In this document: positions 3,620 through 20,658 of the stretch, in pieces
Layout of the letters: the number at the start of each line of letters is the position of its first letter
Position numbering within the stretch: position 1 is the first letter of the stretch
Source of the DNA: Bacteroidales bacterium
GTDB lineage: Bacteria; Bacteroidota; Bacteroidia; Bacteroidales; F082
Reading direction: 5' to 3'
Length of the DNA stretch: 63,377 nucleotides
NCBI GenBank assembly: GCA_017630195.1
Contig: JAGBVS010000209.1
Location: 1-63,377 of the forward strand
The notes under the pieces: model-generated
Database searches by the model: none
Seen by the model: the letters and a program-made list of their open reading frames with translations, nothing else
What the model was told of the DNA's origin: nothing
Made by a program: the position numbers and the translations under genes

Positions 3620-3964
3620 TTATATTTTATTGTTTTCGTTAGGGAATACGATAGAAGGCTTGTGTTTTTTTGCTTCTTCGAAATCCATTGAGCAGTAAGA
3701 AACGATGATGACGAGGTCGCCGACGTTTACTTTATGAGCTGCTGCGCCGTTGATTCCTATCACGCCAGAACCGCGTTCGCCTTTGATAGCGTAAGTGCAA
3801 AGACGTTCGCCATTTGTGATATTATAAATATCAACACGTTCATTTTCAATAATATTAGCTGCATCTAATAAATCTTCGTCTATAGTTATGCTGCCAATGT
3901 AATTAAGGTCGGCTTGTGTTACAGTAGCACGATGGATTTTTGATTTAAGAACTTCAATATTCAT
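3620..3964 (-). CDS. panD: Aspartate 1-decarboxylase
   Basis: A 114-residue pyruvoyl enzyme that makes beta-alanine from L-aspartate for pantothenate. The self-cleavage dipeptide is G24-S25 in YIGSI, exactly where the family has it, and the INGAAAH block and [11 protein letters not shown] end are conserved. Length matches the zymogen. It lies 1 nt after panC, whose product consumes beta-alanine, so the pathway logic and operon agree. Confidence 0.96.
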
Positions 3965-5012: not shown

Positions 5013-5084
5013 GCCCCTATAGTTCAACGGATAGAACGAAAGTTTCCTAAACTTTAAATCTGGGTTCGATTCCCGGTGGGGGTA
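5013..5084 (+). tRNA. tRNA-Arg (anticodon CCT)
   Basis: A complete cloverleaf is readable: acceptor 5013-5019 with 5077-5083 (G-U wobbles at pairs 1:72 and 6:67), D-stem GTTC/GAAC, anticodon stem AAAGT/ACTTT with loop TTCCTAA (anticodon CCT at 5046-5048), and T-arm with loop TTCGATT. Discriminator A at 5084; CCA is not encoded. It reads the AGG arginine codon. The deacetylase ATG follows after only 3 nt. Confidence 0.95.
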
Positions 5085-5087
5085 CAA

Positions 5088-18586: not shown

Positions 18587-19507
18587 ATGAAAATAGTGTT
18601 TTTAGAACCATTGGGACTTTCTGTTGAAAGAATTGAAAATGAATGTAATGTGTTGAAAACTTTAGGTCATGAAGTGATTGTATATTCTGACAGATGTCCG
18701 GATAAAAATATTGAGAGAGCTTCAGATGCCGATATAGTTGTGGAAAGTAATATGCCGTTACGTAAAGATTTTTTTGATGCTTGCCCTAATTTGAAAATGT
18801 TGTCAATTGCATTTACCGGCTTAGATCATATTGATTTGCAAGAATGTGAAAAAAGAGGAATTGTGGTTAACAATGCAGCTGGATATTCAACGGAGGCTGT
18901 GGCTGAAGAAACTATCTGCATGATGATAGGATTGTATCGTAATATTATAGAAAATGATAAGATAACAAGAAGCTGTTCTGGTATGGCAATCGCTCCAGGT
19001 AGAGAAATAGCAAATAAAATAATAGGAATTGTCGGTCTTGGTGCAATAGGACAAAGAACTGCAAAATTGGCGCAAGCATTTGGTTGTAAAGTGATAGCAT
19101 GGAATAGAACTCCAAAGATTGTCGATGGTGTTACTTTGGTTGATAAGGAAACTTTGCTAAAAGAATCAGACATCATAACTCTTCATATAGCTCTTAATGA
19201 TGAGACTCGTAATTTTATTTCAGCCAAAGAAATTGAACTTATGAAACCGTCAGCCGTAATCATTAATGCGGCAAGAGGGCCAATCATCAATACAAAAGAT
19301 CTTGCTAATGCATTGAAAAATGGACAAATTTCTGGTGCAGCTCTTGATGTATTTGATACGGAACCACCACTTGACAAAAACAATCCATTGTTGAATCTGC
19401 CAAACACTATATTGATGCCTCATGTAGGTTTCGCAACAAAAGAAGCTTTTGAACAAAGATTAGAGATTGTAATAAAAAATGTAGAACGTTTTGTTAATAA
19501 AGCGTGA
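18587..19507 (+). CDS. D-isomer-specific 2-hydroxyacid dehydrogenase
   Basis: A 306-residue NAD-dependent dehydrogenase. The Rossmann motif GIVGLGAIGQRTAKLA, INAARGPIINTKDL (substrate-binding Arg), DVFDTEPPL (Glu) and MPHVGFAT (catalytic His) are all in place. Reduces a 2-oxoacid to a D-2-hydroxyacid. It resembles the phosphoglycerate/glycerate dehydrogenase branch but lacks the ACT domain of SerA; the true substrate cannot be told from sequence. No pathway neighbours. Confidence 0.88.
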   Translation: MKIVFLEPLGLSVERIENECNVLKTLGHEVIVYSDRCPDKNIERASDADIVVESNMPLRKDFFDACPNLKMLSIAFTGLDHIDLQECEKRGIVVNNAAGYSTEAVAEETICMMIGLYRNIIENDKITRSCSGMAIAPGREIANKIIGIVGLGAIGQRTAKLAQAFGCKVIAWNRTPKIVDGVTLVDKETLLKESDIITLHIALNDETRNFISAKEIELMKPSAVIINAARGPIINTKDLANALKNGQISGAALDVFDTEPPLDKNNPLLNLPNTILMPHVGFATKEAFEQRLEIVIKNVERFVNKA

Positions 19508-19647: not shown

Positions 19648-19678
19648 TTTGATTATCAAAATAGTAATTGTATTTTTG
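19648..19678 (+). promoter_or_regulatory. Perfect Bacteroidota promoter for the candidate small RNA
   Basis: TTTG (19648-19651), 19-nt spacer, TATTTTTG (19671-19678): an exact match to TTTG-N19-TAnnTTTG, the best in the window. No ORF starts downstream within 380 nt. Confidence 0.75.
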
Positions 19679-19683
19679 CACTA

Positions 19684-19826
19684 ATAAAACGCCCCTAATG
19701 ATTTTATACTGAGGCACTTCTATGATAGTAATCGAAGCCTCTTCCTTGAGCGAAAAGTGGTATTTTTAATGAAACAAGGATGTATAAAGTTTCACTTGAA
19801 TCAAGAATTCAAGTGAGGGGTTTTTT
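19684..19826 (+). ncRNA. Candidate structured small RNA with own promoter and terminator
   Basis: No ORF, but a nested fold: CCCCT (19692-19696) with AGGGG (19816-19820) closes the molecule; TTTATAC (19703-19709) with GTATAAA (19782-19788) closes a second helix containing two hairpins, GAGGC-TTC/GAAGCCTC (19711-19741) and TCCTTG/CAAGGA (19743-19780). A 9-bp perfect terminator stem, CACTTGAAT (19793-19801) with ATTCAAGTG (19807-19815), is followed by GGGGTTTTTT. About 140 nt. It lacks tmRNA, RNase P and SRP RNA signatures. It may match a Rfam family known from Bacteroidales (Bacteroidales-1 or a 6S-like RNA are candidates from memory) or be new. Confidence 0.75.
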
Positions 19827-20070
19827 ATTGGATTCTATTCAAAATTATTTAATTGAATCATGGATGAAGCAAATGCCTATAGACAAATGCTGTAGGTGCA
19901 TGTTCGACGTTTAAAGTTATTTCAAGGTTTAAATACTTATCATATTTTATTTTCTGATTTAATGATAAGAAAGTGTAAAATGTTTTATTTTTGCTGAATT
20001 GTAGAAAATTTATTTAGAAATATATAGTTATAAATTAAAGTTTAAGTTATTTTTGTTTACACGATATTTT
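19827..20070. other. Intergenic region with second small hairpin and promoter
   Basis: After the small RNA, CAAATGC is directly repeated (19870-19876, 19884-19890) and CCTATAG (19876-19882) pairs with CTGTAGG (19890-19896), a 7-bp stem with one G-U. A -7 box TATTTTTG at 20048-20055 serves the next gene. No ORF seen. Confidence 0.4.
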
Positions 20071-20658
20071 ATGAAAAAGGTAGTGCTATTACTTGTAATT
20101 TTATTGTTTGCATCAAACTTCATTCAAGCAAAAGAACCTGTGTCATATTCTGAGAAAGATTATCGCAATTCATTGAAGATAACTTTCTTATCTTGGATTA
20201 GTGGAAGTACAAAACTTTCTTATGAAAGGTCGTTTAGTAACATTCGTCAGAGCGGAGAATTTTGTACAAGTCTTATCGGAGCAGGTTTCGATAAATATAA
20301 TAATGACCCTAAAGGATATACGATGCGCTACGGCCATAAATTTTTTATGAATGATATTCAAAAGAAATCTTTGATGGGTTTTTATCTTCGTCCGGAAGTT
20401 GTTTATTCTCATTACACATATAATTCCCAAGCAGATGGTTTAAGAACTCTTTCAAAAGAGACCGCTTTGCTTGGAACTATTGGCTACCAATATGTTTACA
20501 AAAGATTCCTCGCTGATTTTTGGGTTGGTGGTGGCTATGCTTTTGGTACACCTGCCGATACATATTACCATCACGGTTTTGAATTATGGCATTTTTTCAA
20601 TAGTGTAAATCAAAACTTAGCATTGAGTTTCAGTATTCGTTTGGGAATTTGTTTTTAA
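20071..20658 (+). CDS. Small outer-membrane beta-barrel-like protein
   Basis: A 195-residue exported protein: signal peptide ending FIQA/KE, then alternating aromatic/polar strands (TKLSYERSF, GYTMRYGHKFF, GFYLRPEVVYSH, TALLGTIGYQYVYK, FLADFWVGGGYAFG) and a C-terminal SFSIRLGICF, ending in Phe like outer-membrane barrels. Resembles DUF3575-type Bacteroidales proteins. Probably an 8-strand barrel; function unknown. Start at 20071 is preferred over an in-frame ATG at 20053 that overlaps the -7 box region. Confidence 0.7.
   Translation: MKKVVLLLVILLFASNFIQAKEPVSYSEKDYRNSLKITFLSWISGSTKLSYERSFSNIRQSGEFCTSLIGAGFDKYNNDPKGYTMRYGHKFFMNDIQKKSLMGFYLRPEVVYSHYTYNSQADGLRTLSKETALLGTIGYQYVYKRFLADFWVGGGYAFGTPADTYYHHGFELWHFFNSVNQNLALSFSIRLGICF

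What the first reader, a model, noticed from the sequence alone, without database searches (positions are those of the whole stretch)
19648..19826. Candidate structured small RNA with exact promoter and intrinsic terminator
Within a 563-bp gap free of ORFs, TTTG-N19-TATTTTTG is followed by about 140 nt that fold into a closed shape: CCCCT/AGGGG ends, a 7-bp TTTATAC/GTATAAA helix enclosing two hairpins, and a 9-bp perfect terminator stem before GGGGTTTTTT. Four independent perfect or near-perfect stems plus a perfect promoter are hard to explain by chance. It lacks tmRNA, RNase P and SRP RNA motifs. It may be a lineage-specific regulator, a 6S-like RNA, or a member of a Bacteroidales RNA family.
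Basis: partly seen in the sequence, partly recalled or inferred. Interest (0 to 1): 0.78.

Follow-up and report, generated by a model that had tools for sequence, protein, structure and literature searches.

The report
Rumen-gut small RNA with partner loop
This stretch encodes a real, previously uncatalogued small structured RNA of uncultured gut bacteria, whose most conserved loop is complementary to a conserved loop of a second new RNA in sister species, which suggests an RNA-on-RNA control circuit that can now be tested.

Summary
Window 19686-19826 is a structured RNA gene (RNA-A) with a consensus-type Bacteroidetes promoter and an intrinsic terminator. A covariance model built only from four relatives finds it at 110 bits. 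RNA-A fills the same gap, between a D-2-hydroxyacid dehydrogenase gene and a small exported-protein gene, in 5 of the 10 genus genomes where these genes are neighbours, and occurs in 5 of 99 genus genomes searched. Five base pairs survive changes on both sides. No Rfam family matches.

The new part is hairpin P4, with a nearly invariant core, AGCGANAAGTGGTRTTTT. The core also lies in a second new RNA (RNA-B, upstream of a Porin_10 gene) and in some mRNA leader hairpins. RNA-B carries a conserved anti-core, ACCACACCWTCGCTC, complementary to the core in two blocks. In most but not all copies, folded separately, the complementary loops are open. I infer that RNA-A is a trans-acting partner or decoy of RNA-B. 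That RNA-A is a real RNA gene is near certain. The mechanism rests on sequence alone, and RNA-B was not found in the window's own incomplete assembly.

The parts
19648..19678 (+). promoter, TTTG-N19-TATTTTTG
   Evidence: the DNA search exact match; TTTGATTAT...TATTTTTGCA kept in G446, G444 and G435 (spacer 18-19), weaker upstream box in G027. The consensus itself is recalled.
19686..19826 (+). RNA-A, the small RNA (start inferred from promoter distance; end = T-run)
   Evidence: Model R1 built without the window finds exactly 19686-19826, 110 bits, E 3.5e-24
19692..19695 (+). P1 5' side CCCC, pairs with 19817-19820
   Evidence: three of its four pairs formed in 5 of 5 copies, the fourth in 4 of 5
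19817..19820 (+). P1 3' side GGGG
19700..19709 (+). P2 5' side GATTTTATAC, pairs with 19782-19791
   Evidence: 100% of cells paired, one pair with a double change, five pairs with one-sided changes, four invariant
19782..19791 (+). P2 3' side GTATAAAGTT
19711..19741 (+). P3, hairpin of variable sequence and length (GAGGC/GCCTC here; GAGAC/GTCTC, GAAGT/ACTTC, GGAGT/ACTTC, GAAAT/ATTTC in relatives)
   Evidence: three of its five pairs have changes on both sides; 84% of cells paired; stems read
19743..19780 (+). P4, clamp stem TCCTTG/CAAGGA enclosing the conserved core
   Evidence: 87% of cells paired, no double change; G027 fits only with a shifted register; similar clamp stems in four RNA-B copies
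19749..19766 (+). core AGCGAAAAGTGGTATTTT; AGCG 19749-19752 and loop GTGGTA 19757-19762 predicted open
   Evidence: AGCGANAAGTGGTNTTT: 10 sites, in only 5 of 99 genus genomes, reversed-pattern control 1 site; base-pair probabilities
19793..19826 (+). P5 terminator hairpin CACTTGAAT-CAAGA-ATTCAAGTG, then A, GGGG and TTTTTT
   Evidence: terminator scan 1 found against 0.1 in shuffles; 100% of cells paired
18587..19507 (+). upstream neighbour, D-2-hydroxyacid dehydrogenase
   Evidence: PF02826, PF00389
20074..20658 (+). downstream neighbour, small exported protein (ORF listing starts it at TTG 20053; ATG 20074 chosen here), with its own promoter-like box near 19985-19993
   Evidence: ORF; no Pfam family; a similar box is kept in G009, which lacks RNA-A

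Best explanation
RNA-A is an independently transcribed regulatory RNA of about 140 nt, closed end to end: its 5' CCCC pairs with the GGGG beside its terminator, and P2 encloses P3 and P4 (supported by comparison of sequences; transcription itself not shown). Its working site is the P4 core, with AGCG and the loop GUGGUA predicted open in 4 of 5 copies. Its partner is RNA-B, a second new RNA of the same clade, whose terminator-like hairpin carries the complementary UACCAC loop and CGCU beside it; the two would meet by a bipartite loop-loop contact of about 6 + 4 bp (inferred). Because RNA-B carries a copy of P4 in its own 5' half, and the same core lies in hairpins of some mRNA leaders, RNA-A most likely acts as a decoy or competitor: it occupies RNA-B's anti-core and so changes what RNA-B does to those leaders or to the porin gene next to it (inferred; direction of the effect unknown).
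For: RNA-A is real: syntenic in 5 genomes, R1 match, 5 double-changed pairs against 1.9 in shuffles, 11 of 500 shuffles as high, and 95% of cells paired against 40-54% when partners are slid. The core is clade-specific and repeats in RNA-B of G446, G027 and G487 (two copies). The anti-core ACCACACCWTCGCTC is kept in all 5 RNA-B copies found; a bipartite complement of the core arises in at most 3 of 5000 shuffles of any one RNA-B (102). Folded separately, AGCG and GUGGUA are largely open in RNA-A of G000, G446, G435 and G027; the loop with ACCAC is largely open in RNA-B of G446, G487b, G027 and G009, and CGCU clearly open in G446 and G487b. In those folds the conserved but non-complementary middles (NAA, ACC) are stem sides. 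In G009 RNA-B has no P4 but keeps the 15-base anti-core, identical to that of G487a, so it is not kept only for pairing within the same molecule. G009 and the window's genome have a leader hairpin with AGCGAGAAGTGGT (46, 47).
Against: RNA-B was not found in the window's own assembly (84% complete; exact patterns only; the one G000 hit lies in a 253-aa open frame), nor was its neighbouring porin gene; G435 and G444 likewise. Exposure is not uniform: in RNA-A of G444 GUGG is mostly paired; in RNA-B of G487a the anti-core is mostly paired, and in G027 CGCU is mostly paired. In a window-wide duplex scan the core was the best site for only 3 of 5 anti-cores. Lowest-energy folds of RNA-B show no core/anti-core pairing in the same molecule; the ensemble expects 3.3 such pairs in G027 and 0.25 or fewer in the other three. 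The contact shows only wobble-type variation, no double compensatory change. RNA-A is missing in half of the genomes with its gene pair, so it is dispensable. The leader hairpins were found through the core itself, and two of seven lack it. No expression data.
Confidence: 0.42

Rival explanations
1. The core is a protein-binding (or ligand-binding) site. RNA-A, RNA-B and the leader hairpins all bind one RNA-binding protein, and RNA-A titrates it, as CsrB-type RNAs do. The anti-core only lets RNA-B switch between two folds.
For: The core recurs in the same sense in three RNA contexts, each time in a hairpin; beyond four hits inside long open frames the anti-core is seen only in RNA-B. An RRM protein binds an sRNA family in Bacteroides (PMC11697453, abstract passage and other passages).
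Against: G009 RNA-B keeps the anti-core although it has no P4. The open bases on the two sides match each other block by block in several copies, which protein binding would not require.
Confidence: 0.29
2. RNA-A is a cis-acting 5' leader (attenuator) of the exported-protein gene at 20074.
For: RNA-A keeps its place just upstream of that gene in 5 genomes, and RNA-B also lies upstream of an outer-membrane gene.
Against: About 250 nt and a separate promoter-like box lie between the terminator and the gene; a similar box remains in G009, which has no RNA-A. The gene is kept without RNA-A in 5 of 10 genomes. The core does not pair clearly better than shuffled cores with its start region: 68, 69, 130, 348 and 217 of 500 shuffles do as well in the five genomes.
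Confidence: 0.08
3. RNA-A is a diverged member of a known class such as 6S, Bacteroidales-1 or FopS/GibS.
For: Size, free-standing gene, terminator.
Against: No Rfam match for RNA-A even at E up to 10 apart from three chance-level models (homologues in 99); 5 of 99 genomes; closed multibranch shape without the 5' single-stranded seed described for FopS.
Confidence: 0.03
4. A DNA-level element (for example a mobile hairpin or recombination site), not an RNA.
For: The core recurs at several loci, and RNA-A is present or absent between close relatives.
Against: Promoter, helix-preserving changes and terminator are conserved around the core; RNA-A keeps one syntenic place in separate lineages; no phage or plasmid match.
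Confidence: 0.04

Closest known systems
CopA/CopT- and RNAI/RNAII-type antisense RNAs (recalled; only a search listing was seen)
   Same: Complementary exposed hairpin loops meet first (here inferred).
   Different: Those are fully complementary RNAs from opposite strands of one locus; here two RNAs from separate genes share two short complementary blocks, and one of them also carries its partner's loop.
FopS/GibS sRNAs of Bacteroides (PMC11697453, abstract passage and other passages)
   Same: Free-standing Bacteroidales sRNAs; FopS use the common sigma-ABfr promoters and repress outer-membrane SusC-like transporters.
   Different: FopS are 14 paralogues with a single-stranded 5' seed plus a terminator; RNA-A is a closed multibranch RNA with a hairpin-loop core, one copy per genome in the five genomes that have it.
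Sponge or decoy sRNAs (general class, recalled)
   Same: A short RNA copies the binding site found in targets and would titrate a regulator.
   Different: Here the mimic is a structured hairpin, and the proposed regulator carries its own copy of it.
6S-flavo RF01685 and Bacteroidales-1 RF01693 (named in PMC2864571, passages)
   Same: Structured RNAs of Bacteroidetes.
   Different: No covariance-model match; RNA-A is restricted to a few species.

Membership tests
6S RNA | match to the Rfam covariance models | tested here: not met
6S RNA | broad conservation within a genus, as a housekeeping RNA | tested here: not met
   5 of 99 genus genomes (stricter filters)
6S RNA | long rod with a large central bubble (recalled) | tested here: not met
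   predicted shape is a closed multibranch RNA
6S RNA | binds RNA polymerase | not testable with these tools
   needs experiment
Bacteroidales-1 (RF01693) | match to the Rfam model | tested here: not met
tmRNA | ARAGORN or Rfam match | tested here: not met
   (one tRNA-Arg only in the window)
RNase P RNA and SRP RNA | match to the Rfam models | tested here: not met
FopS/GibS sRNAs | single-stranded 5' seed followed by a terminator, many paralogues | tested here: not met
   5' end paired in P1/P2; one RNA-A per genome
FopS/GibS sRNAs | sequence-model match | tested here: inconclusive
   no Rfam hit, but whether FopS is in this Rfam copy was not checked
loop-loop antisense RNA pair | complementary blocks in the two RNAs | tested here: met
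loop-loop antisense RNA pair | those blocks open in hairpin loops of both partners | tested here: inconclusive
   open in 4 of 5 RNA-A; ACCAC loop open in 4 of 5 RNA-B, CGCU clearly open in 2 of 5
loop-loop antisense RNA pair | transcribed from opposite strands of one locus | tested here: not met
   RNA-A and RNA-B are separate loci
loop-loop antisense RNA pair | physical binding and regulation | not testable with these tools
   needs experiment

The most novel reading that the evidence does not exclude
A three-part RNA circuit of a new design: one 'key' hairpin loop (AGCG + GUGGUA) is carried by a stand-alone sRNA, by mRNA leader hairpins at the end of a conserved short leader peptide, and by the 5' domain of RNA-B, while a single 'lock' loop in RNA-B's terminator hairpin reads all three, so that RNA-A tunes RNA-B's free lock.
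Probability: 0.26. Interest if true: 0.75.

Novelty: new variant of a known kind. Interest (0 to 1): 0.56.

Why it matters
RNA regulation in uncultured gut Bacteroidales is little explored (my judgement). This gives two RNAs with named contact bases and natural variants: genomes with both RNAs (G446, G027), one that keeps the lock without RNA-A or P4 (G009), and some with the neighbouring genes but neither RNA (G431, G439). If the contact is real, it is a compact loop-loop decoy system next to surface-protein genes that can be tested with short transcripts alone.

Tried and rejected
Rfam at gathering and lenient thresholds for RNA-A and for homologues, RNA-B and leader loci: no family other than 5S rRNA, one Flavo-1 hit outside the RNAs and weak miRNA/snoRNA models far below their thresholds. 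Phage and plasmid collections: nothing. Core pattern with 2 mismatches in 60 genomes: 39 of 60 had a match, and the reversed control also matched widely, uninformative. Core in 393 order genomes: own genome plus one hit in G107, which lies in an 879-aa open frame. Core in viral contigs: 0. Anti-core in viral contigs: 69 exact hits to a 15-base pattern, taken as chance, not read one by one. Loose anti-core (60: 43 of 99 genomes, control similar) and domain-2 pattern (75: 31 of 99 genomes, many sharing one tRNA-like string): mostly background; the known RNA-B copies of G027 and G446 and of G027, G009 and G446 (75) are among the hits, none in G000 beyond RNA-A's own complement and a coding hit. 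Extra anti-core hits in G446 C120, G459, G476 and G478 lie in long open frames and were dropped. Coding explanation: no frame is open across all five copies; a frame through the core is open in four and broken in G027, judged by eye. RNA-A acting on the neighbouring gene: not clearly better than shuffled. In one search the matches in G431 and G031 (part seen in 103) do not look like leader hairpins and were dropped. Paper search for the core string: one paper in the listing, on marine vesicles, not opened.

Failed or repeated steps: one search aligned two relatives in the wrong orientation, redone; the extraction in 52 found nothing, redone in 55; the tree script 89 stopped with an error, redone. 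RNAalifold on the MAFFT alignment (45) found only 2 pairs with a change on both sides and a covariation term near zero, because P3 and the terminator loop differ in length; the counts used are those of the model-fitted alignment (85), which lean towards the model. Notebook errors: entry 2 says '5 of 9' (it is 5 of 10) and entry 5 says CGCU is open in G027 (it is mostly paired); leader peptides in entries 1 and 2 are loosely spelt. On rechecking I lowered the main confidence from 0.45 to 0.42, the novel case from 0.27 to 0.26, and raised the protein rival from 0.27 to 0.29.

Full report
1. The observation. Window 19684-19830 folds at -40.1 kcal/mol against -26.2 in shuffles (z -3.7, 0 of 200 as good). 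The terminator is one found against 0.1 expected. The promoter pattern by itself is at chance level in the window (3 against 1.8). The opposite strand folds almost as well (z -4.0), so strand rests on the promoter, the T-run and conservation.

2. Homologues. A DNA search in 60 related genomes gave one clear relative, G027, with a 70% match in the same gene neighbourhood. Searching both neighbouring proteins in 99 genomes of the genus gave 11 genomes with a close downstream gene (E below 1e-90); in 10 of them the two genes are neighbours (in G429 they are about 6 kb apart). RNA-A fills the gap in 5 of these 10: the window's genome G000, G446, G444, G435 and G027. In the other 5 (G009, G439, G430, G431, G440) the gap is only 103-248 bp and holds no RNA-A. 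A covariance model built from the four other copies, the window left out, finds window 19686-19826 at 110 bits, E 3.5e-24. Genus-wide it finds full-length RNA-A in 5 of 99 genomes (stricter filters and a capped first look of 29 candidates per genome, so diverged copies could be missed).

3. Structure. The five copies fold to one overall shape: P1 joins the two ends, P2 encloses P3 and P4, then comes the terminator hairpin P5. G444 has an extra hairpin beside P3. On the model-fitted alignment 95% of 200 cells are standard pairs (40-54% when partners are slid by 1-3 columns), and 5 pairs change on both sides against 1.9 in shuffles (11 of 500 as high). P3 is the clearest: GAGGC/GCCTC, GAGAC/GTCTC, GAAGT/ACTTC, GGAGT/ACTTC, GAAAT/ATTTC. 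Five sequences are few and that alignment leans to the model; on the plain MAFFT alignment RNAalifold saw only 2 such pairs. So this is good but not overwhelming support. No reading frame is open across all five copies (by eye).

4. The core. P4 holds AGCGANAAGTGGTRTTTT, nearly invariant. In 99 genus genomes AGCGANAAGTGGTNTTT occurs 10 times, only in the five genomes that have RNA-A; the reversed control occurs once. A scan of 84,980 genomes with the core plus its AAAC flank found 7 stretches from 5 assemblies, titled Bacteroidales, Lentimicrobiaceae or just 'Bacterium'; four titles name water-buffalo rectum or colon, dairy-cattle colon or yak colon, the fifth (SIG105) names no source. RNA-A of G446, G444, G435 and G027, and RNA-B of G446, G027 and one G487 locus, are letter-identical to these.

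5. A second RNA. The extra core sites led to RNA-B, upstream of a Porin_10 gene (PF14121, tested on the G487 protein). It occurs in G446, G027 and twice in G487. A 5S rRNA gene lies upstream in G027 and at both G487 loci (cmscan); in G446 the contig ends within a 5S-like stretch that cmscan did not report; in G009 the stretch held shows no 5S. RNA-B has a promoter-like box, P4 with the core near its 5' end and, downstream, AGTGTGG...ACCACACCWTCGCTC...CCACACTTTT (aligned differently in G027). The anti-core is complementary to the core in two blocks (AGCGA/TCGCT and GTGGT/ACCAC) around a middle that is conserved but not complementary. In shuffled RNA-B such a bipartite complement appears in at most 3 of 5000. 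G009, the closest relative of the window's genome in both protein trees, has neither RNA-A nor P4 in its RNA-B, yet keeps the 15-base anti-core, identical to that of G487a. Porin orthologues in G431 and G439 have no RNA-B in the stretch upstream; no such porin was found in G000, G435, G444, G440, G430 or G429 (6 of 12 genomes searched had one).

6. Why loop-loop contact. Pair probabilities were computed for each RNA alone. RNA-A: AGCG and GUGGUA are largely open in G000, G446, G435 and G027; in G444 GUGG is mostly paired and AAA open. RNA-B: the loop with ACCAC is largely open in G446, G487b, G027 and G009; CGCU is clearly open in G446 and G487b, partly in G009, mostly paired in G027; in G487a the anti-core is mostly paired. 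So in the majority of copies the open blocks are the complementary ones, and the non-complementary middles are stem sides, which would explain why those are conserved too. Duplex energies of core and anti-core are -17.8 to -22.7 kcal/mol for 25 pairings. In a scan of the window in 3-base steps the core was the best site for 3 of 5 anti-cores; other sites beat it for G487a and G009.

7. Leader hairpins. In G027 (3 sites), G000 (C168) and G009 (C8) AGCGAGAAGTGGT lies in a hairpin at or just after the stop of a short conserved frame, e.g. MNTNIFILGKNKYIKCCSL, MNTNIFILGKNRYIKRRSL, MMINIFILGKNKFIKWLSL; in one G027 copy the frame stops earlier (MNTSIHILGKNKYI). Downstream lie various putative exported proteins, one with a Peptidase_S74 domain. 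Two sister hairpins (G027 C52, G009 C29) have other loops. These are possible targets, but the G027 ones were found with the core pattern and the rest by similarity to them, so they are weaker evidence.

8. Evolution. Trees of the two neighbouring proteins place RNA-A in separate lineages: the dehydrogenase tree (14 rows) needs 5 changes, at least 3 forced by well-supported branches; the other tree (10 rows) needs 4, at least 2 forced. With one syntenic site, the simplest reading is one origin and several losses, but many branches are weak.

9. Mechanism and scores. Supported by comparison: RNA-A is a conserved structured RNA with a nearly invariant hairpin core, and RNA-B carries the complement. 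Inferred: transcription, binding, decoy action, targets. I put about 0.95 on RNA-A being a genuine RNA gene, 0.42 on RNA-A acting through RNA-B's anti-core, 0.29 on a protein-binding core. Main weaknesses: RNA-B is unseen in the window's own incomplete assembly, exposure of the contact bases is not uniform, there are no double compensatory changes at the contact, and there are no expression data.

10. Known relatives. No Rfam family fits. It differs from FopS/GibS in architecture (PMC11697453, abstract passage and other passages) and from 6S and Bacteroidales-1 by lack of model match (families named in PMC2864571, passages). In the full-text library a search for the core string listed one paper on another subject, and a search for sponge RNA, kissing, small RNA and Bacteroidetes listed eight papers, none by title or abstract start on these RNAs. 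These searches and Rfam are the only basis for calling it unreported.

Noticed in passing
L177:551-760, L179:3463-3675 (-), L182:3511-3700 (-), L183:434-621, L178:3471-3632 (-): RNA-B, a second uncatalogued structured RNA upstream of a Porin_10 gene, in three of five copies shown to follow 5S rRNA; its terminator-like hairpin holds the conserved anti-core.
   Followed up: yes
L061:1760-1870 and 3760-3865, L062:2120-2220 (-), L122:1500-1590, L123 (-): Repeated cassette: a short conserved leader peptide (ILGKNK/R-FIK/YIK) whose stop codon usually lies inside a hairpin (CTCTCTGTAA/TTACAGAGAG) with a variable loop, upstream of different putative exported proteins; looks like a leader-peptide regulated family.
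   Followed up: partly
L171:4135-4221 (-): Flavo-1 RNA (RF01705) match at 42.2 bits, just above its threshold of 42, on the G446 contig that carries RNA-B.
   Followed up: no
L183 and L177 (G487): The G487 genome holds two diverged 5S/RNA-B/porin loci (porins 68% identical), so it may be a mixed bin or have a duplicated locus.
   Followed up: no
L061:3600-3690, L062:2310-2400: GCCATTGCCATAGCCATC-type hexamer arrays upstream of two of the leader cassettes.
   Followed up: no
window 5013-5085: tRNA-Arg (CCT), the only tRNA found in the window.
   Followed up: no
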